NCBI RefSeq assembly: GCF_006716785.1
Contig: NZ_VFPQ01000001.1
Span: forward strand, 4,154,001-4,218,000
Source: Thermopolyspora flexuosa
GTDB taxonomy: Bacteria > Actinomycetota > Actinomycetes > Streptosporangiales > Streptosporangiaceae
DNA length: 64,000 nt
Direction of reading: 5' to 3'
Part shown: in pieces, positions 26,607 through 40,367 of the stretch
How the letters are laid out: each line of letters begins with the position of its first letter
Position numbering within the stretch: the stretch's first letter is position 1
The notes under the pieces: generated by a model
Seen by the model: only the letters and a program-made list of their open reading frames with translations
Told to the model about the DNA's origin: nothing
The model's database searches: none
Made by a program: the position numbers and the translations under genes

Positions 26607-26953
26607 GACGCTCCCTCACCTCGGTGAACCACCCGGGCGGTGCGCCTCCTGCGCGGGCGGCCCGCTCTGTACTGCTCGTCCACGTCCTCACAACCCCCTG
26701 TGGCCACATGTGGCACCGGGGCAGTTTTGCACATCGGCGACATTCGCGTTGAGATACTGGGAATCCTCCGTGTCACAAAAAGGTTTCCTTTCTGGGACGC
26801 CGCCCCAGCTCAGCCCATTCGTCGCATCCGGACCGGCGGCATGCCCCGGTCTGCGCAGGACGAATGTCGTAGCCCCGGACCCGCGCGGAAGCGGGATTCC
26901 GTGACGCGGTGGTGCCCTCGGGTGAGGAACGGCCGAGGTGTCAGACTGGCGGC
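26607..26953. promoter_or_regulatory. divergent promoter region, Pro-rich gene / cofD
   Basis: A 347-bp gap separating the minus-strand proline-rich gene from cofD. It contains a GTGGCCAC palindrome followed by another TGTGGC copy (about 26699-26716) and a short A-rich run near 26776. Both promoters should be here. No gene was recognised. Confidence 0.45.
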
Positions 26954-27892
26954 ATGCGCATTGTGTCTCTCGCCGGCGGCATCGGGGGCGCGCGGTTCCT
27001 GCGCGGGCTCAAGGCGGCGGCGCCCGACGCCGAGATCACCGTGATCGGCAACACCGGGGACGACATCACCCTGTTCGGCCTGCGGGTCTGCCCCGACCTC
27101 GACACGGTCATGTACACGCTGGGCGGCGGCATCAACGAGGAGCAGGGCTGGGGCCGGGCGGACGAAACGTTCACGGTCAAGTCCGAGCTCGCCGCCTACG
27201 GGGTCGAGCCGCAGTGGTTCGGCCTGGGCGACCGCGACCTCGCCACGCACATCGTGCGCACCCAGATGCTCTCGGCGGGCTACCCGCTCTCCCAGGTCAC
27301 CGAGGCGCTGTGCACACGCTGGAACCCCGGCGTCCGGCTGATCCCGATGAGCGACGACCGGGTGGAGACCCACGTGGTGATCGAGGACGAGCAGGGCCGC
27401 CGCGCCATCCACTTCCAGGAGTGGTGGGTACGGCTGCGCGCCTCGGTCCCGGCGCAGCGGATCGTGCTCGTCGGCGCGGACGAGGCGAAGCCCGCCCCCG
27501 GCGTGCTGGAGGCGATCGCCGAGGCCGACGTGGTGATCCTGCCGCCGTCGAACCCGGTGGTGAGCATCGGCACGATCCTGCAGATCCGCGGCATCCGCGA
27601 GGCGCTCGAGCCGAAGCCGGTGGTCGGCGTCTCCCCGATCATCGGCGGCGCCCCGGTGCGCGGCATGGCCGACGCCTGCCTCACCGCGATCGGCGTGCCC
27701 ACCACCGCCCAGGCCGTGCTCGAGCTGTACGGCACGCCGCTGATCAACGGCTGGCTGGTCGCCGAGGAGGACCGGGACGTGGCCCTGGACGGCGTGCGCG
27801 TGGTGGCCCGCCCGCTGCTCATGACCGACCTGGAGGCGGCGGCCGACATCGCCCGCGCCGCGCTGCGCCTCGCCGAGGAGGTCGCCGCGTGA
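26954..27892 (+). CDS. cofD: 2-phospho-L-lactate transferase (CofD/FbiA)
   Basis: A 312-residue enzyme of coenzyme F420 biosynthesis. It joins a guanylylated three-carbon phosphate (phosphoenolpyruvyl- or lactyl-diphospho-guanosine) to the deazaflavin FO, forming (dehydro-)F420-0. The N-terminus [19 protein letters not shown] and [19 protein letters not shown] are the family nucleotide/phosphate sites; [17 protein letters not shown] is also conserved. ATG 26954 is chosen because the family starts there. It overlaps the next gene by GTGA, so cofD and cofE/fbiB are coupled. Confidence 0.95.
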
Positions 27893-29178
27893 GCACGCCC
27901 CGGTTCGAGGCGTACGGCCTGCCCGGCCTGCCGGAGATCACCCCGGGCACGGACCTCGCCGAGGTGATCGCCGCCGCCGAGCCGGGCCTCCGCGACGGCG
28001 ACATCGTCGTGGTGACCTCGAAGATCGTCAGCAAGGCGGAGGGCCGCATCCGGAAGGCGGCGAGCCGTACCGAGGCGATCGAGGAGGAGACCGTGCGGGT
28101 GGTGGCGCGGCGCGGGGAGACCGTGATCGCGCAGACCCGGCACGGCCTGGTGATGGCGGCGGCGGGCGTGGACGCCTCGAACACCGAGCCGGGCACGGTG
28201 CTGCTGCTGCCCGAGGACCCGGACGCCTCGGCCCGCCGCATCCGGCAGGGCCTGCGCGAGCGGCTCGGCGTGCAGGTCGGCGTGCTCGTCTCCGACACCT
28301 TCGGCCGCCCCTGGCGGGAGGGCCTGGTCGACGTGGCGATCGGCGCGGCGGGCGTGCGGCCGCTCGACGACCTGCGCGGCACCACCGACCCGTTCGGCAA
28401 CCCGCTGGTGGCGACGGTGACCGCGGTCGCCGACGAGATCGCGGCCGCGGCCGAGCTGGTGAAGGCGAAGACCGCGGGCGTCCCGGTCGCGGTGGTGCGC
28501 GGCCTCGCGTCCTGGGTGACCGCCGAGGACGGCCCCGGCGCCCGGGCCATGGTCCGCCCCGCCGACCAGGACATGTTCCGGTACGGCTCGGCCGACGTGG
28601 TGTTCGCCCGCCGTACCATCCGGGAGTTCACCGGCGAGCCGGTGGACCCGGCGGCGGTGCGCCGCGCGGTGGCCGCCGCGATCGCCGCCCCGGCGCCGCA
28701 CCACACCACGCCGTGGCGGTTCGTGCTGCTCGAGTCGGAGCAATCCCGCACCGAGCTGCTCGACGCGATGCGCGAGGCGTGGATCGCCGACCTGCGCGCC
28801 GACGGGCTCTCGGAGGAGGCGATCGCCCGCCGGGTGCGCCGCGGCGACGTGCTGCGCAACGCGCCGTACCTGGCGGTGCCGTGCCTGGTGATGACCGGCG
28901 CGCACCGCTACCCGGACGCGCGGCGGGCCACGGCCGAGCGGGAGATGTTCGTGGTCGCGGCAGGGGCCGGGGTGGAGAACTTCCTGGTCCAGCTCGCGGT
29001 GGAGGGCCTCGCCTCGGCCTGGGTGTCGTCGACGATGTTCTGCCGGGACGTGGTGCGCAAGGTGCTCGGCATCCCGGACGACTGGGACCCGATGGGCGCG
29101 GTCGCGATCGGGCACGCCGCGGCGCCGCCCCGGCCGCGTCCGCCGCGCCGCCCGGACGACTTCATCGTCACCCGCTGA
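27889..29178 (+). CDS. fbiB: coenzyme F420-0:L-glutamate ligase, bifunctional FbiB
   Basis: A 429-residue two-domain enzyme. Residues 1-240 are the CofE ligase that adds gamma-linked glutamates to F420-0: [32 protein letters not shown] and [18 protein letters not shown] are visible. Residues 245-429 form an FMN-dependent nitroreductase fold ([30 protein letters not shown]) as in mycobacterial FbiB, which reduces dehydro-F420-0 and supports long tail synthesis. The GTG start overlaps the cofD stop. The fusion is the standard actinobacterial form. Confidence 0.95.
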
Positions 29179-30262: not shown

Positions 30263-31366
30263 GTGAAGATCGTCCTGGTCGGCCCGACCTACCCGTACAA
30301 GGGCGGCGGCGCCCAGCACACCACCGAGCTCGCCCACCGCCTCGCCGCCGCGGGCCACGACGTGGTGATCGAGTCGTGGCGGGCGCAGTACCCGTCGTTC
30401 CTCTACCCGGGGCAGCAGACGATCGACGCGCCCGAGGGCGAGCCGTTCGGCAACGTACGGCGCGAGCTCGACTGGCGCCGCCCCGACGGCTGGCTGCGCG
30501 CGGGCCGCCGCCTGCGCTCCGCCGACCTGGTGGTGCTGGCCGTGCTCAGCCCGGTGCAGGTCCCGCCGTACCTCGGCATCCTGTACGGCCTCGGCGCCCG
30601 CCGCCGCCCCGGCGCCACGCCCCGGGTGGTGGCCCTGTGCCACAACGTGCTGCCGCACGAGCGCAGGCCGTACGACCGCCCGCTGATGAAGGCCCTGCTG
30701 CGCCGCGTCCACCTGGTGCTCACCCACAGCGACCAGCAGTCCGCCCTCGCCGCCGACCTCGCCCCGACCCCGCGCCGGGTCGCCGTCATGCCACCCCACC
30801 TGCCTGCCCGCCGCGACGCGACGGGTGTCTCGGAGGAGCCGCCGAGGGTCCGCAACCGCCTCCTCTTCTTCGGCCTCGTCCGCCCGTACAAGGGCCTCGA
30901 CATCCTGCTCCGCGCCCTCGCCGCGGGCCCGCCGCAGGTCTCGCTGACGGTCGCCGGCGAGTTCTGGGGCGGCCTGGAGGAGACCCGCGAGCTGATCGCC
31001 GAACTCGGCCTGACCGACCGCGTCGAGCTGCGCCCCGGCTACGTCCCCGCCGACCAGGTCCCCGCCCTCTTCGAGCAGGCCGACGCCCTCGTCCTGCCGT
31101 ACCGCTCGGCCACCGCCAGCCAGAACGTCTGGCTCGGCCACGAGCACGGCGTCCCCGTCATCGCCACCCGCGTCGGCGCCCTCGCCGACCACATCACCGA
31201 CGGCGTCGACGGCCTCCTCGTCGAACCCGGCTCCGTCGAGGCCCTCACCGACGCCCTCAACCGCTTCTACGCCCCCGGCGAGCCGGAACGCCTGCGCGCG
31301 GGTGTGAAGGCCGTCGACCCCGACCCCTACTGGGCGCGTTACGTGGAGACGCTGCTCGCCCCCTGA
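30263..31366 (+). CDS. family 4 (GT-B) glycosyltransferase
   Basis: A 367-residue GT-B fold glycosyltransferase. The N-terminal acceptor half starts VKIVLVGPTYPYKGGGAQHT. The C-terminal donor half has LLFFGLVRPYKGLDILLRAL, ADALVLPYRSATASQNVWLG and the EHGVPVIATRVGALADHI donor-binding region. Sugar specificity cannot be read. It is co-transcribed with the preceding GT2 gene. Third-position GC rises sharply in its last third, but no break in homology is seen. Confidence 0.88.
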   Translation: MKIVLVGPTYPYKGGGAQHTTELAHRLAAAGHDVVIESWRAQYPSFLYPGQQTIDAPEGEPFGNVRRELDWRRPDGWLRAGRRLRSADLVVLAVLSPVQVPPYLGILYGLGARRRPGATPRVVALCHNVLPHERRPYDRPLMKALLRRVHLVLTHSDQQSALAADLAPTPRRVAVMPPHLPARRDATGVSEEPPRVRNRLLFFGLVRPYKGLDILLRALAAGPPQVSLTVAGEFWGGLEETRELIAELGLTDRVELRPGYVPADQVPALFEQADALVLPYRSATASQNVWLGHEHGVPVIATRVGALADHITDGVDGLLVEPGSVEALTDALNRFYAPGEPERLRAGVKAVDPDPYWARYVETLLAP

Positions 31367-31411
31367 CCGGGCTCCGGCTGCGCTCGCGGCGGGGGGCGAG
31401 GCGGCGGAACG

Positions 31412-31448
31412 AAAAAGGTCTGCCGAGCCCGTGCAGGGCCCGGCAGAC
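31412..31448 (-). terminator. intrinsic terminator of the EF-hand-like gene
   Basis: On the minus strand a GC-rich stem (31418-31430 paired with 31436-31448) is followed by a run of five U (A on the plus strand, 31412-31416). It lies about 80 bp after the stop of the 31529-31930 gene and also sits beyond the convergent glycosyltransferase. Confidence 0.75.
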
Positions 31449-31528
31449 GCGGCATATCCCTTTATCGTCCCTTATTGCGGGATCCCGAGAAGTCCCGTGG
31501 CACCGAAATCACTCCGGTACGGGGAGTC

Positions 31529-31930
31529 TCACTTGCAGTACTTCCTCAGGTACGCGCGCAGGTCCTCCGGAGCGATAACGCCGTCCTTCTTGCTGCGCGG
31601 GGCCGCGTTGTCGAGCCTGTCGAACCACCTCTTGTGCATCTTCCGGGTGAGCATGGTGGCCGCGCCCTTGAGGTCGCCGGAGGCGTTGACCTTGCCGTTC
31701 TTGACGGCCACCAGGTCCTTGAAGGTGAACAGGCCGTCGCGGATGCCGGACCTCGCCGAGTCCAGCACGTGGAAGTCGGTCAGGAGAACGCGGGTGTAGA
31801 AGCACTTGAGCTTCTGGGTGCTGGACACCTGGGCGGTGGCCGCCGAGGCCTGGGCCGGGGCGGCCGCGAGACCGATGGCCATGATTCCGGCGGTGGCCGC
31901 GGTGGCGGCGGCGGCGAGGAACTTGCGCAT
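31529..31930 (-). CDS. small secreted protein with EF-hand-like repeats (copy A)
   Basis: A 133-residue exported protein. The signal peptide is MRKFLAAAATAATAGIMAIG ending near APAQA (residue 28). The mature part has two degenerate EF-hand-like loops: VLDSARSGIRDGLFTFKDL and LDNAAPRSKKDGVIAPEDL. Two Cys (in KLKCFY and RKYCK) could pair outside the cell. ATG 31930 has a GGGAGA site upstream. A paralogue (32325-32735) stands 395 bp away on the same strand with a closely matching upstream region. Calcium binding is inferred only from motif shape. Family not recognised. Confidence 0.8.
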   Translation of the reverse strand: MRKFLAAAATAATAGIMAIGLAAAPAQASAATAQVSSTQKLKCFYTRVLLTDFHVLDSARSGIRDGLFTFKDLVAVKNGKVNASGDLKGAATMLTRKMHKRWFDRLDNAAPRSKKDGVIAPEDLRAYLRKYCK

Positions 31931-31985
31931 TTCGATGTCTCCCTTTCCGGTGTCGCCAACGTTTCCCGTTGCGCGTATCCATGCC

Positions 31986-32100
31986 TTCGATGCGGTGACG
32001 ACATCTCGGGTTCGACCAAAAAATGCGACATAGACCACAGAACTCGTCCTGCCCAGAACGTGTCCTCATATAGAATGCGCCCGGACATCCGCCGGGCGAT
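31986..32100 (-). repeat. duplicated leader/promoter block, copy A
   Basis: About 115 bp nearly identical to 32790-32905, with an exact shared core (AATGCGACATAGACCACAGA). It begins 56 bp upstream of the copy A start; the second copy begins 55 bp upstream of the copy B start. The conservation of noncoding DNA implies promoter or 5'-leader function, or a recent duplication. Confidence 0.75.
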
Positions 32101-32242
32101 CCGCCCCTGAAACATTCAGCCTATTGTGAAACATTCACTCTCTACGGGTGCCTCGCTTCCGCACACCGCTCGTCCGGCGATTCATCCGCCGGAAATTCAA
32201 CGCGAACGTCACAGTGAGAGTCGGCCTGCGGCTCGGGAAAAC

Positions 32243-32280
32243 AAAAAGGTCTGCCGTGCCGGTAACGGCCCGGCAGACCT
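32243..32280 (-). terminator. intrinsic terminator of the second EF-hand-like gene
   Basis: A stem formed by 32248-32262 and 32266-32280 is followed on the minus strand by five U residues. Its sequence (GTCTGCCG arms) closely resembles the terminator of copy A at 31412-31448, so terminator, gene and leader were all duplicated. Confidence 0.75.
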
Positions 32281-32324
32281 CGAACGCATCGCCTCGTCAG
32301 CGATGCCCCGGCGGCGGCCTTACG

Positions 32325-32735
32325 TCAGCCGCCGCAATACTGCTTCAGGTACGCCTTGAGGTCGTCCCGCGAGACCAGCCCGTCCGGGTTGTCCTTCGCG
32401 CCCTTGTACGCCGTGTCGAGCCGGCTCCACCAGTGCACATTGTCCCGGGCCGGCTGCAGAAGCAGAGTGACCGCGGCCTTCAGGTCGCCGGAGGCGTTGA
32501 CCTTGCCGTCCCTTACCATCCGTGCGTCGTCGAGACCGAACAGACCGTCGTGCTTACCGGACAGCGCCGAGTCGAGCACGTGGAAATCGGCCAGGAAGAC
32601 CCTGGTCTCGAAGCATCGGAGCCGGTCGGCGCCGGACGAGGTCTGGGTCGCGCTCGCCGCGGCCTGAGCCGGGCCGGCGGCAATACCCATGGCCATAACG
32701 CCGGCGACGGCCGCGGCAGCGAACAATTTCCGCAC
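32325..32735 (-). CDS. small secreted protein with EF-hand-like repeats (copy B)
   Basis: A 136-residue paralogue of the 31529-31930 product. The signal peptide VRKLFAAAAVAGVMAMGIAA ends near GPAQA. The mature protein contains LRCFETRVFLADFHVLDSA, the loops SALSGKHDGLFGLDDAR and KGAKDNPDGLVSRDDLKAYL, and a C-terminal Cys (KQYCGG). Spacing of Cys residues and loops matches copy A. GTG 32735 is preceded by AGGGAGA at good spacing; a longer frame upstream to 33020 overlaps the shared leader and is not coding. Role is unknown; secretion and Ca2+ binding are inferences. Confidence 0.8.
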   Translation of the reverse strand: MRKLFAAAAVAGVMAMGIAAGPAQAAASATQTSSGADRLRCFETRVFLADFHVLDSALSGKHDGLFGLDDARMVRDGKVNASGDLKAAVTLLLQPARDNVHWWSRLDTAYKGAKDNPDGLVSRDDLKAYLKQYCGG

Positions 32736-32789
32736 GGAATCTCCCTTGCGTGTCGTTGTCGTTGAACCGCACTGTGCGGTTCTGGGTGG

Positions 32790-32905
32790 TTCGATGCGCT
32801 GACGACACCTCGAGTTCGGCCAAGAAATGCGACATAGACCACAGAACCCATCCCACCCAGAACGCGTCCTTATGCAGAACGCGCCCGGGCACCCGGCGGC
32901 GGGCG
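32790..32905 (-). repeat. duplicated leader/promoter block, copy B
   Basis: Second copy of the approximately 115-bp block upstream of the twin secreted-protein genes. Differences from copy A are mostly single-base substitutions. Confidence 0.75.
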
Positions 32906-33120
32906 AACCGCCCCGCCCGGCCGGCTCCGGCCCCCACGCCGGGATCACCGCACGCACAGCGCGGAGTGTGCCGCCGGCCGCCGCCGTCGTGGCGTGCAAC
33001 CGGATCTCCTGCGTCCACATCGGTTCGCCGCTGCCGGACCGGCGGGAGGATTACGACGTGGCCGCCTACCCGGTCGTCGACCCGCCGGACGGGCACCGCC
33101 CGCCTGCGACGCCTATCTGA

Positions 33121-33354
33121 AGCACCTCGGACGGCGAGTTCTACGTCTGGCCGACGGGCTCCGGCCCGGACGGCTGGACGGTGACGCAGGGCGGGCCGTA
33201 CCGGCTGTGGGACCGTGTCGAGGCGAGCGTGCGGGCCTGGCGGGAGGCGGGAGCACCGAGTCAGGACCGCTTCACGATCGGCATCACCGAGAAACGGCAG
33301 GTCGTCGCCTGTCCCGATCATCCCGGGCTCGTCTGGGAGCCGCCCGGTTCGTGA
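33121..33354 (+). pseudogene. remnant of a methyltransferase-like C-terminal domain
   Basis: A 77-codon stretch open from a TGA at 33118-33120 to a TGA at 33352. It reads SDGEFYVWPTGSGPDGWTVT, then YRLWDRVEASVRAWREAG and PSQDRFTIGITEKRQVV. The L-W-D-x-V-E-x-W-x-x-A-G pattern resembles the C-terminal tail of actinobacterial isoaspartate-type methyltransferases found with ATP-grasp peptide-modification systems. There is no start codon with a ribosome binding site and no SAM-binding domain, so it appears to be a decayed gene end. A possible upstream part in another frame (about 33001-33120) is not recognisable. Confidence 0.35.
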
Positions 33355-33456
33355 CCGTGCGCACAGGACGGTTGGGCGCACTGTGGTCACCCGCGGGAAA
33401 CGGTTCGATCGCCAGAGGCCTGCCGGTAGGGCCGAAGGTCGGTAACGTTGGGCGGC

Positions 33457-34311
33457 GTGGGTAGGGAACGCACCGCGCAGCTCGAGTACTCCGAGATACA
33501 GAGCGCCATGCTCGACGAGGCGAAGCGCCGGCGGAAGGCCGCGAAGATCATCGCGGTTCTCGGGCACTTCCTCGGGCGTGAGTCCGGCGATGGCGGTAAG
33601 GGTGTGCTCGACGGGATGACCGTGGCCGACATCGGGTGTTCGGCCGGGTTCATCGCGGACGAGCTGGTCAACGCGGGGGCGAGCCGTACCCTCGGGGTGG
33701 ACATCGACGTGCCGGGGTTACGGCGCGCCGCGGCCCGGTTCGGGGACCGGGTGGTGTTCCTGTGCGGGGACGGTACGGCACTGCCGTTCCCGGACAACTC
33801 GGTGGACGTGCTCGTGTTCAACCACATCTACGAGCACGTGGTGGACCCGGACGCCGTGGTGAAGGAGATGCACCGGGTGCTCGCCGACGACGGCGTGCTC
33901 TACCTCGGGCTGGGCAACCGTCTCGGCGTGATGGAGCCGCACTACAAGCTGCCGTTCCTCTCCTACCTGCCGCCGGCGCTCGCCGACTGGTACGTGCGGC
34001 TGTTCGGGAAGGCGGACCGCTACCACGAGCGGTTCCGCACTCGGCGCGGGCTGCGGCGCATGCTCCGGGACTTCTACGTGTGGGACTACACGCTCCCGGT
34101 GCTCGTCACCCCGGACCGCTTCGCCGGGTCGGAGCTGTTCGCCGGGCTGCCCGGCCGGTTCGCCCGGGCGGTGCTGGACCGCATGCCCGGGTTCCTGCTG
34201 CGGGCGCTGCTGCCGCTGGTGCCGACCTATCTGTGGGTCGCCACCAAGAAGCCGCGCTATCCCGCCGGGGAACGGCTGCCGCGTCCGCCCGAGTTCGTAC
34301 GGACCCCATGA
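33457..34311 (+). CDS. class I SAM-dependent methyltransferase
   Basis: A 284-residue methyltransferase. The SAM-binding motif I is TVADIGCSAGFIADELV, with motif II TLGVDID and the acidic LPFPDNSVDVLVFNHIYEHV typical of Methyltransf_11. Residues 150-284 are hydrophobic in parts (LLRALLPLVPTYLWVATKK), suggesting membrane association. The substrate is likely a lipid-linked sugar or lipid, judged from neighbouring glycosyltransferase, flippase-like and NDP-sugar genes. GTG 33457 is used; a TTG at 33448 is an alternative and neither has a strong ribosome binding site. Confidence 0.85.
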   Translation: MGRERTAQLEYSEIQSAMLDEAKRRRKAAKIIAVLGHFLGRESGDGGKGVLDGMTVADIGCSAGFIADELVNAGASRTLGVDIDVPGLRRAAARFGDRVVFLCGDGTALPFPDNSVDVLVFNHIYEHVVDPDAVVKEMHRVLADDGVLYLGLGNRLGVMEPHYKLPFLSYLPPALADWYVRLFGKADRYHERFRTRRGLRRMLRDFYVWDYTLPVLVTPDRFAGSELFAGLPGRFARAVLDRMPGFLLRALLPLVPTYLWVATKKPRYPAGERLPRPPEFVRTP

Positions 34312-37763: not shown

Positions 37764-40367
37764 ATGACTCAGGCCTCCCCGAGTGCACACGCCCTGCGTC
37801 GGGCTCTCGCCCGCGCGCGTGACGGAAAGCAGCTCAACCTCGACGAAGCCGTCGTGCTCCTGCAGGCGCGCGGCGACGCGCTCGACGCGCTCCTGGAGCA
37901 CGCGTCCCGGGTGCGGGACTCCGGGCTGGAGGCGGCCGGACGGCCGGGCGTGATCACCTACAGCCGGAAGGTGTTCATCCCGCTCACCCGGCTGTGCCGG
38001 GACCGCTGCGGCTACTGCACCTTCGCCACCGCCCCCGCCAAGCTGCCGGCGCCGTACCTCTCCCCCGACGAGGTGCTCGAGATCGCCCGGCAGGGTGCGG
38101 CGCTGGGGTGCAAGGAGGCGCTGTTCACCCTCGGCGACCGGCCCGAGGACCGCTGGCACCAGGCCCGCGAGTGGCTGGACGCGCACGGGTACGACGACAC
38201 GCTCTCCTACGTGCGCGCGATGGCGATCCGGGTGCTGGAGGAGACCGGCCTGCTGCCGCACCTCAACCCGGGCGTGATGAGCTGGCGCGACCTGCAGCGG
38301 CTCAAGCCGGTCGCGCCGTCGATGGGGATGATGCTGGAGACGACCTCGCGGCGGCTCTTCGAGGAGAAGGGCGGGCCGCACTACGGCTCGCCGGACAAGG
38401 ACCCCGCGGTACGGCTCCGCGTGCTGGAGGACGCCGGGCGGGTGGCCGTGCCGTTCACCACGGGCATCCTCATCGGGATCGGCGAGACCCTCGAGGAGCG
38501 GGCCGAGTCGATCTTCGCGATCCGCAAGGTGGCGCGCGAGTACGGCGGCATCCAGGAGGTGATCGTCCAGAACTTCCGCGCCAAGCCGGACACCGCGATG
38601 CGCGGCATGCCCGACGCCGACCTGCACGACCTCGCCGCCACGATCGCGGTGGCCCGGCTCGTGCTCGGCCCGAAGATGCGGGTGCAGGCGCCGCCGAACC
38701 TGGTCGACGAGGAGTACGCGCTCATGCTGCGCGCGGGCATCGACGACTGGGGCGGGGTGTCGCCGCTCACCCCGGACCACGTCAACCCGGAGCGGCCCTG
38801 GCCGCAGATCGAGGAGCTGGCCGCGCGGACCGCGGAGGCCGGGTTCGAGCTGCGCGAGCGGCTCACCGTGTACCCGGAGTACGTGCTCGCCGGGGAGCCG
38901 TGGATCGACCCGCGGGTGCGCGCGCACGTGGCCGCGCTCGCCGACCCGGCCACCGGGCTCGCCCGGCCGGACGCCGAGATCGTGGGGCGGCCGTGGCAGG
39001 AGCCGGACGGCGGGTTCGCCGCGGCCGGCCGTACCGACCTGCACGTGGAGATCGACACCGTGGGCCGCACCAGCGACCGGCGGGACGACTTCGACCACGT
39101 CTACGGCGACTGGGACGCGCTGCGCGAGCGGCTCGCCGAGGCGGGCGACGGCCCGGCGGTGCTCGTCGGCGAGCTGGGCGCGGCGCTGCGCAAGGCCGCC
39201 GAGGACCCGGCCGGGCTCACCGAGGAGGAGGCCCTGACCCTGCTCGGCGCGGCCGGCGACCGGTACGGCAGGGGCGCGGACGACGCGGCGCTCGACGAGA
39301 TGGCCCGGATCGCCGACGACCTGCGGCGCGAGGCGGTCGGCGACGACGTCACCTACATCGTCAACCGGAACATCAACTTCACCAACGTCTGCTACACCGG
39401 CTGCCGGTTCTGCGCGTTCGCCCAGCGGCGCAACGACGCCGACGCGTTCACCCTGTCCCTGGAGCAGATCGCGGAGCGGGCGCGCGAGGCGTGGGAGGCC
39501 GGGGCGACCGAGGTGTGCATGCAGGGCGGCATCCACCCCGACATGCCGGGCACCGCGTACTTCGACATCGCCCGGGCGGTCAAGCAGGCCTGCCCGGAGA
39601 TGCACGTGCACGCGTTCTCCCCGATGGAGGTGGTGAACGGGGCGAGCCGTACCAATATGTCGATCGAGGAGTGGCTGGTCGCGGCGCGCGAGGCCGGGGT
39701 GGACTCGCTGCCCGGCACCGCGGCGGAGATCCTCGACGACGAGGTGCGCTGGGTGCTCACCAAGGGCAAGCTGCCCACCAGCGAGTGGATCGAGGTGATC
39801 ACCACGGCCCACCGGGTCGGCATCCCCACCACCGCGACGATCATGTACGGGCACGTGGACACCCCGCGGCACTGGGTGCGGCACATCCGGCTCATCCGGA
39901 GCATCCAGGAGGAGACCGGCGGATTCACCGAGTTCGTGCTGCTGCCGTTCGTGCACACGAACGCGCCGATCTACCTCGCGGGTGTGGCCCGGCCGGGCCC
40001 GACCGCGCGGGAGAACCGGGCGCTGCACGCGCTCGCCCGCATCCTGCTGCACGGTGCGATCCGTAACATCCAGTGCTCGTGGGTGAAGCTCGGCGACGAG
40101 CTGTGCCGGAAGATCCTCCAGGGCGGGGCGAACGACCTCGGCGGCACGCTCATGGAGGAGACGATCAGCCGGATGGCCGGGTCGGACAACGGCTCGTACA
40201 AGACGATCAGCGAGATCGCCGCGATGGTCGCCCCGACCGGGCGCCCGCTGCGCCAGCGCACCACCTCGTACGGCACGCCGAGCGAGGAGCGCCTCGCCGC
40301 GGCCCGGGCGAGCGACGGGGTGTGCCGGAGCGTGCGCCGGCCGGTGCTGCCCGTGCTCGCCGACTGA
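37764..40367 (+). CDS. fbiC: FO synthase, fused CofG-CofH (FbiC)
   Basis: An 867-residue double radical-SAM enzyme that makes the deazaflavin FO from tyrosine and 5-amino-6-ribitylaminouracil. The CofG half has the 4Fe-4S motif [11 protein letters not shown] (Cys78, Cys82, Cys85). The CofH half has [11 protein letters not shown] (Cys543, Cys547, Cys550). Glycine-rich SAM-binding segments and [13 protein letters not shown] occur in the second half. The fused form is characteristic of actinobacteria. With cofD and fbiB the window encodes most F420 steps; the guanylyltransferase CofC/FbiD is not seen here. Confidence 0.97.

What the first reader, a model, noticed from the sequence alone, without database searches (positions are those of the whole stretch)
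31412..32905. Duplicated small secreted EF-hand-like proteins with duplicated leader and terminator
Copies A and B share signal-peptide style, loops and cysteines, and have near-identical 115-bp noncoding upstream blocks at equal distance (55-56 bp) from the start, plus matching terminators. The noncoding similarity looks stronger than the protein similarity. This suggests either recent duplication with diverging proteins or selection on a shared regulatory leader, perhaps a structured 5' UTR. Motifs DGLF and DGL(V/I) with following D/E-D-L resemble degenerate EF-hands.
Basis: partly seen in the sequence, partly recalled or inferred. Interest (0 to 1): 0.6.

Follow-up and report, generated by a model that had tools for sequence, protein, structure and literature searches.

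The report
Tandem pair of orphan secreted-protein genes
Two neighbouring copies of a gene for a small, probably exported bacterial protein sit on an extra 2,000-base stretch of one actinobacterial genome, with a shared control region preserved better than the genes themselves; our searches found no relatives of the protein and its job is unknown.

Summary
Two minus-strand genes, A (31529-31930, 133 aa) and B (32325-32735, 136 aa), encode 55% identical proteins with signal-peptide-like starts. Each has its own upstream block (93 of 110 nt identical), ribosome site and terminator, so whole monocistronic units were duplicated. The block is better kept than fourfold-degenerate sites (28 of 44) or the adjoining spacer (30 of 59 columns), which suggests selection on it.

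The block gives no structured-RNA signal (fold z-scores near 0); it looks more like promoter/operator DNA with three TTCT-core repeats 17 and 16 nt apart. Canonical EF-hands are not supported: none of four aligned DG loops fits Dx[DN]xDG and the profile matches are below cut-off.

New here: A and B lie on about 2.0 kb inserted between a glycosyltransferase and a methyltransferase gene; the one same-genus genome held has about 170 bp there. The stretch also carries the decayed C-terminus of a RiPP-type methyltransferase. No convincing homologue was found in 338 family, 384 class (own genome counted in both) or 295 Streptomyces-like genomes.

Best reading: an acquired, tandemly duplicated, co-regulated pair of orphan secreted proteins. 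Real, modestly interesting, function untested.

The parts
31529..31930 (-). gene A: 133-aa protein, signal-peptide-like N-terminus (AxA site), two cysteines in the mature part
   Evidence: translation; GGGAG ribosome site 8 nt before ATG (sequence)
32325..32735 (-). gene B: 136-aa paralogue, GTG start
   Evidence: translation; 55% identity to A; GGGAG 5 nt before GTG (sequence)
31986..32095 (-). conserved upstream block of A (probable promoter/operator)
   Evidence: 93 of 110 nt identical to the B block
32790..32899 (-). conserved upstream block of B
   Evidence: only two copies in the own genome
32039..32075 (-). three TTCT-core repeats in the A block, first bases at 32075, 32058, 32042 (17 and 16 nt apart)
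   Evidence: GTTCTG-N10-GTTCTG occurs only at the two blocks in the own genome (control 0)
32843..32879 (-). the same three TTCT-core repeats in the B block, first bases at 32879, 32862, 32846; B has a further TTCT at 32826 that A lacks
32764..32782 (-). palindrome with perfect 9-bp arms, GAACCGCAC-A-GTGCGGTTC, in the B spacer; A has only a shorter CAACG/CGTTG pair there
   Evidence: sequence
31418..31448 (-). intrinsic terminator of A (13-bp stem, T run)
32249..32278 (-). intrinsic terminator of B, same stem ends as A
31371..33377 (.). about 2.0 kb present here and absent at this place from the same-genus genome G001; carries A, B and a gene remnant
   Evidence: DNA homology to G001 stops at 31370 and resumes at 33378 (95 unmatched bp in G001)
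33121..33354 (+). decayed C-terminal remnant (77-aa frame, in-frame stop at 33118-33120) of a RiPP-type methyltransferase
   Evidence: TIGR04188 E 8e-14, 51.8 bits (whole-protein cut-off 380), model positions 318-361 of 363; no Pfam match; relatives match with their C-terminal ends

Best explanation
A single transcription unit (promoter/operator block, short leader, gene for a small exported protein, terminator) was duplicated in tandem, inside or together with a ~2-kb stretch of DNA that this lineage gained between a glycosyltransferase and a methyltransferase gene. Both copies were kept. The upstream block is held by selection as double-stranded control DNA: a promoter plus a regulator-binding array of three TTCT-core repeats. 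Both proteins are therefore probably made under the same condition. The proteins are probably exported by Sec, cleaved at AxA, and fold as small helical proteins closed by one disulphide (C43-C132), with helix-loop-helix units that resemble EF-hands without the full calcium ligand set. The mature surfaces diverge quickly, as for proteins whose partner or target differs. Shown: duplication, unit anatomy, block conservation, absence from the sister genome at this place. Inferred: selection as its cause, gain rather than loss, export, disulphide, fold, regulator. Not shown: expression, partner, activity.
For: Unit duplication with block, gene and terminator. Block 93/110 against fourfold sites 28/44 (p 0.008), third positions 83/130 (p 0.0004), adjoining spacer 30/59 columns and the stretch upstream 59/126 columns. 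Repeats at the same 17/16 spacing in both copies. Ribosome-binding sites and paired terminators. Insertion: in same-genus G001 the glycosyltransferase and methyltransferase are about 170 bp apart, and of 22 loci around this glycosyltransferase (own included) only the own one encodes A/B. Insert G+C is 67.1% against a sliding-window mean of 73.3%; 6 of 580 windows outside it are as low. All-helical models.
Against: The dN/dS interval includes 1, so protein function is not proved by it. No sigma-70-type promoter matched; no known operator was recognised. Models have low confidence (mean pLDDT 65 and 55) and A's model has no helix before its second DG loop. G001 is 78% complete, so A/B elsewhere in that species is not excluded. 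Only two sequences exist, so every conservation claim rests on one pair; local gene conversion of the block would look similar.
Confidence: 0.6

Rival explanations
1. The upstream block is a structured RNA leader (riboswitch, attenuator or thermosensor) controlling both genes after transcription starts.
For: 110 nt is long for a core promoter; it lies at nearly equal distance (55 and 54 nt) from both starts; 15 of 17 differences are transitions, which tolerate G-U pairing, against 7 of 16 at fourfold sites.
Against: Folding no better than shuffles in 4 of 4 stretches (z -0.11, 0.03, 0.78, -0.21), and the two copies fold differently alone; 0 of 39 consensus pairs compensatory; no Rfam match at threshold.
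Confidence: 0.12
2. The block is similar because of local gene conversion or mutation-rate differences, not selection.
For: Sharp edges of the conserved block; the coding sequence also has islands of identical codons, once eight in a row.
Against: The block differs at 17 of 110 sites, so conversion would not be very recent; both terminators are also kept while the DNA between them and the genes is not.
Confidence: 0.2
3. A and B are true EF-hand (calmodulin-like or dockerin-like) calcium-binding secreted proteins.
For: Two loops DG-x-hydrophobic-xxx-D at aligned positions in both; two or more such motifs in 0 of 200,000 shuffles of A and a fraction 9e-05 for B (motif chosen after seeing the sequence); dockerin_GC E 0.0019 for B; EF-hand_6 E 0.065 for A; in the models helices flank loop 1 in both and loop 2 in B.
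Against: Ligand positions 1 and 3 are S/I, R/K, S/K and K/N; 0 of 4 loops match Dx[DN]xDG; all profile scores below cut-off.
Confidence: 0.12
4. A and B are decaying junk brought in with the insert, like the methyltransferase remnant beside them.
For: The insert holds a broken gene; the dN/dS interval includes 1.
Against: Both frames are open with start, ribosome site, signal-like peptide, cysteines and terminator; block conserved beyond synonymous sites.
Confidence: 0.1

Closest known systems
EF-hand proteins, e.g. periplasmic CaBP of Caulobacter vibrioides (PMC13171946; abstract and section 18 read)
   Same: 133 aa, N-terminal Sec signal reported there and signal-like start here; DG loops
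   Different: CaBP's three loops are reported to keep Asp1, Asp5 and Glu12; here positions 1 and 3 lack acidic ligands and position 12 is Asp
dockerin_GC (NCBIfam NF041540)
   Same: weak profile match over the last loop and helix of B (residues 109-134, E 0.0019)
   Different: 18.5 bits against a cut-off of 29
ATP-grasp peptide maturase system methyltransferase (TIGR04188)
   Same: the 77-aa remnant at 33121-33354 matches its C-terminus
   Different: only the last part is left, and it is a neighbour of A/B, not a relative

Membership tests
EF-hand calcium-binding domain | loop pattern Dx[DN]xDG (PMC3123361, passages read) | tested here: not met
   loops SGIRDG, RSKKDG (A) and SGKHDG, KDNPDG (B): 0 of 4 (sequences)
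EF-hand calcium-binding domain | profile match above Pfam gathering score | tested here: not met
   EF-hand_6 13.5 bits for mature A, cut-off 25; none for B
EF-hand calcium-binding domain | helix-loop-helix pair fold | tested here: inconclusive
   models of mean pLDDT 65 and 55: helices flank loop 1 in both and loop 2 in B, but no helix precedes loop 2 in A
EF-hand calcium-binding domain | binds Ca2+ | not testable with these tools
   needs purified protein
GC-type dockerin | NCBIfam NF041540 score at or above 29 bits | tested here: not met
   14.6 bits (A), 18.5 bits (B)
structured cis-regulatory RNA | folding better than shuffled sequence | tested here: not met
   z -0.11, 0.03, 0.78, -0.21
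structured cis-regulatory RNA | compensatory base changes | tested here: inconclusive
   0 of 39 pairs, but only two sequences exist
known Rfam family | match at gathering score | tested here: not met
   in 31300-33500 two matches of 15 and 14.5 bits (gathering 90 and 100), both over B's terminator
Sec-exported protein | n-region, hydrophobic core, AxA site | tested here: inconclusive
   seen by eye; no signal predictor was at hand

The most novel reading that the evidence does not exclude
A and B found a new, lineage-restricted family of small secreted proteins with a degenerate EF-hand-like, disulphide-closed helical fold whose surfaces diversify after tandem duplication while a 110-bp control array is frozen: an extracellular effector, inhibitor or signal pair that keeps identical timing but changes target.
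Probability: 0.25. Interest if true: 0.5.

Novelty: new member of a known kind. Interest (0 to 1): 0.3.

Why it matters
Orphan genes in recently gained DNA are common but rarely come with internal evidence of selection. Here the duplicate offers some: control DNA kept, protein changing. If expressed, the pair is a compact case for asking how a new secreted protein family starts, and the 110-bp block could lead to the regulator that adopted it.

Tried and rejected
Homologues. P0002 in 60 relatives: own genome only, two places. Profile A1 in 341 family genomes: 53, own included, at E 0.1 or better; most matches cover only the signal-peptide positions (best outside the own genome E 5.1e-4 over positions 1-45), a third weak place in the own genome (E 0.058, positions 9-37) among them; ten places in other genomes reach beyond position 60. 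Of those loci I read only L028, where no start-to-stop ORF of 80 aa or more covers the match in its frame; the other nine were not read. With the mature-part profile A4 only the own genome of 338 remained at E 0.01. A4 in 384 class genomes: own plus two weak matches (E 0.002 and 0.004), judged chance after their forward open frames of more than 120 residues were read. These searches score only about 12-16 candidates a genome, so distant relatives can be missed. No relative from two genome-contig scans and one viral-contig scan, which reach close relatives only, or from plasmids and phages. The B block as DNA in 394 class genomes: 224 had some match at E 0.1 or better, but besides the own two the best is E 1.9e-5 over 29 nt, and the listed ones (the list is cut) are short pieces, mostly of its G+C-rich upstream end.

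Rejected family names. QRPTase_C (E 0.012; 0.026 for mature B; weak PDB echoes), below cut-off and taken as chance. DUF7599 (E 0.057 at best): in 60 relatives over cut-off in none, with sub-threshold matches in 8 of 60 and in 7 of 14 control genomes. PHROGs: E 1.9 and 0.13 over the signal-like start; PADLOC none. Fold search with the model of A: best Foldseek E 3.2, no EF-hand in its list; VIA-align best Z 4.1, rmsd 4.8, 76 aligned, no EF-hand among the rows; for a weak helical model neither shows anything. The model of B was not searched. A resemblance of the repeated unit to FxxLDTAxxGGxxDGxISxxDL modules of other bacterial proteins is recalled and comes from no call; internal repeat alignment is weak to moderate (shuffles reaching the score: 123, 49, 19 and 22 of 3000). 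No sigma-70-like promoter in 31300-33500, no tRNA in the window. Papers: six searches showed nothing on this protein pair in their listings; passages of PMC3123361 and PMC4196763 and parts of PMC13171946 were read. I make no wider claim about print.

Full report
What is there. On the minus strand of the window two genes lie head to tail: B (32325-32735) and, downstream, A (31529-31930). Both have an open frame, a GGGAG ribosome site and a signal-peptide-like start ending in AxA. The proteins are 55% identical, the mature parts 52%. Each has its own intrinsic terminator with the same stem ends, and a 110-nt block ends 55 or 54 nt before the start. So the duplicated object is a whole transcription unit. 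In the own genome (5.77 Mb, 3 contigs) no third copy of the block or of the protein was found at E 0.001.

Is the block under selection? Between the copies the block keeps 93 of 110 bases (15 transitions, 2 transversions). The coding sequence keeps 263 of 390, third positions 83 of 130, fourfold sites 28 of 44 (7 transitions and 9 transversions among the 16 changes). Fisher tests give p 0.008 (fourfold) and 0.0004 (third positions). The spacer between block and start keeps 30 of 59 aligned columns and the stretch upstream of the block 59 of 126, so the conserved piece has sharp edges. With one pair only, selection is the likeliest reason but local gene conversion cannot be excluded. Paralogue dN/dS is 0.76 (bootstrap 95% 0.49-1.21), 0.58 (0.27-1.15) in the central part and 1.08 (0.48-2.39) in the C-terminal part.

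RNA or DNA signal? Four stretches of the upstream regions folded as RNA gave z-scores of -0.11, 0.03, 0.78 and -0.21. The consensus structure has 39 pairs, none with compensatory change. Rfam gave two hits far below threshold, both over B's terminator. The block instead holds three TTCT-core repeats at identical spacing (17, 16 nt) in both copies; GTTCTG-N10-GTTCTG was found nowhere else in the genome. I read this as promoter plus operator array (inference); which regulator or sigma factor uses it is not known, and no sigma-70-like site was found.

The proteins. Pfam, NCBIfam, PHROGs and PADLOC gave nothing or only weak matches, below the curated cut-offs where there are any. Two or more such motifs occur in 0 of 200,000 shuffles of A and in a fraction 9e-05 for B, but the motif was chosen after the fact. 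Measured against the published EF-hand loop pattern Dx[DN]xDG (PMC3123361, passages), 0 of 4 loops fit: positions 1 and 3 are not acidic. AlphaFold models made from two sequences are all-helical, with mean pLDDT 65 (A) and 55 (B); helices flank the first loop in both and the second loop in B, but not in A. That is too weak for a fold call. An EF-hand-like fold without canonical calcium sites is possible; calcium binding should not be assumed. Caulobacter CaBP (PMC13171946, abstract and section 18) is of the same size and also exported, but its loops are reported to keep the ligands.

Where they come from. The glycosyltransferase next door (30263-31366) was found in 22 of 41 genomes, own included, at E 1e-40 or better. 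In the one same-genus genome, G001, glycosyltransferase and methyltransferase are about 170 bp apart; DNA identity (93% on both sides) stops at window 31370 and resumes at 33378. In G010, of another genus, the two genes are also about 110 bp apart. Of the 22 loci only the own one encodes A/B. About 2.0 kb is therefore extra in this lineage, most simply by gain. It has 67.1% G+C against a sliding-window mean of 73.3%. Its far end carries the C-terminal remnant of a TIGR04188-type methyltransferase (E 8e-14, below the whole-protein cut-off as a fragment must be) with an in-frame stop just upstream; relatives with long frames match it mainly with their last 55-75 residues. The own genome holds no other match to it at E 1e-6. 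No tRNA was found in the window; I did not search for transposases. No donor was found; see Tried and rejected for the counts and their limits.

Verdict. It is ordinary in kind. The conservation pattern makes it worth a transcript map and a secretome check, not more, until expression is shown.

Noticed in passing
window 33121-33354 (+): Remnant of the C-terminus of an ATP-grasp-type RiPP methyltransferase (TIGR04188, E 8e-14) beside the A/B pair, with an in-frame stop just upstream; matches in long open frames occur in other genomes of the family (14 of 40 other genomes at E 1e-6).
   Followed up: partly
window 32764-32782: Palindrome with perfect 9-bp arms in the spacer between B's block and start; copy A has only CAACG/CGTTG there. 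A possible second operator private to B.
   Followed up: no
window 26909-29178 and 37764-40367: Open frames that look like F420 biosynthesis genes (fbiA/cofD, fbiB, fbiC) by recall; not tested with profiles.
   Followed up: no
L044, L045, L046, L048, L049 (loci around the glycosyltransferase): In these five genomes the flippase-like gene lies between glycosyltransferase and methyltransferase in the opposite orientation, so this junction is rearranged across the family.
   Followed up: partly
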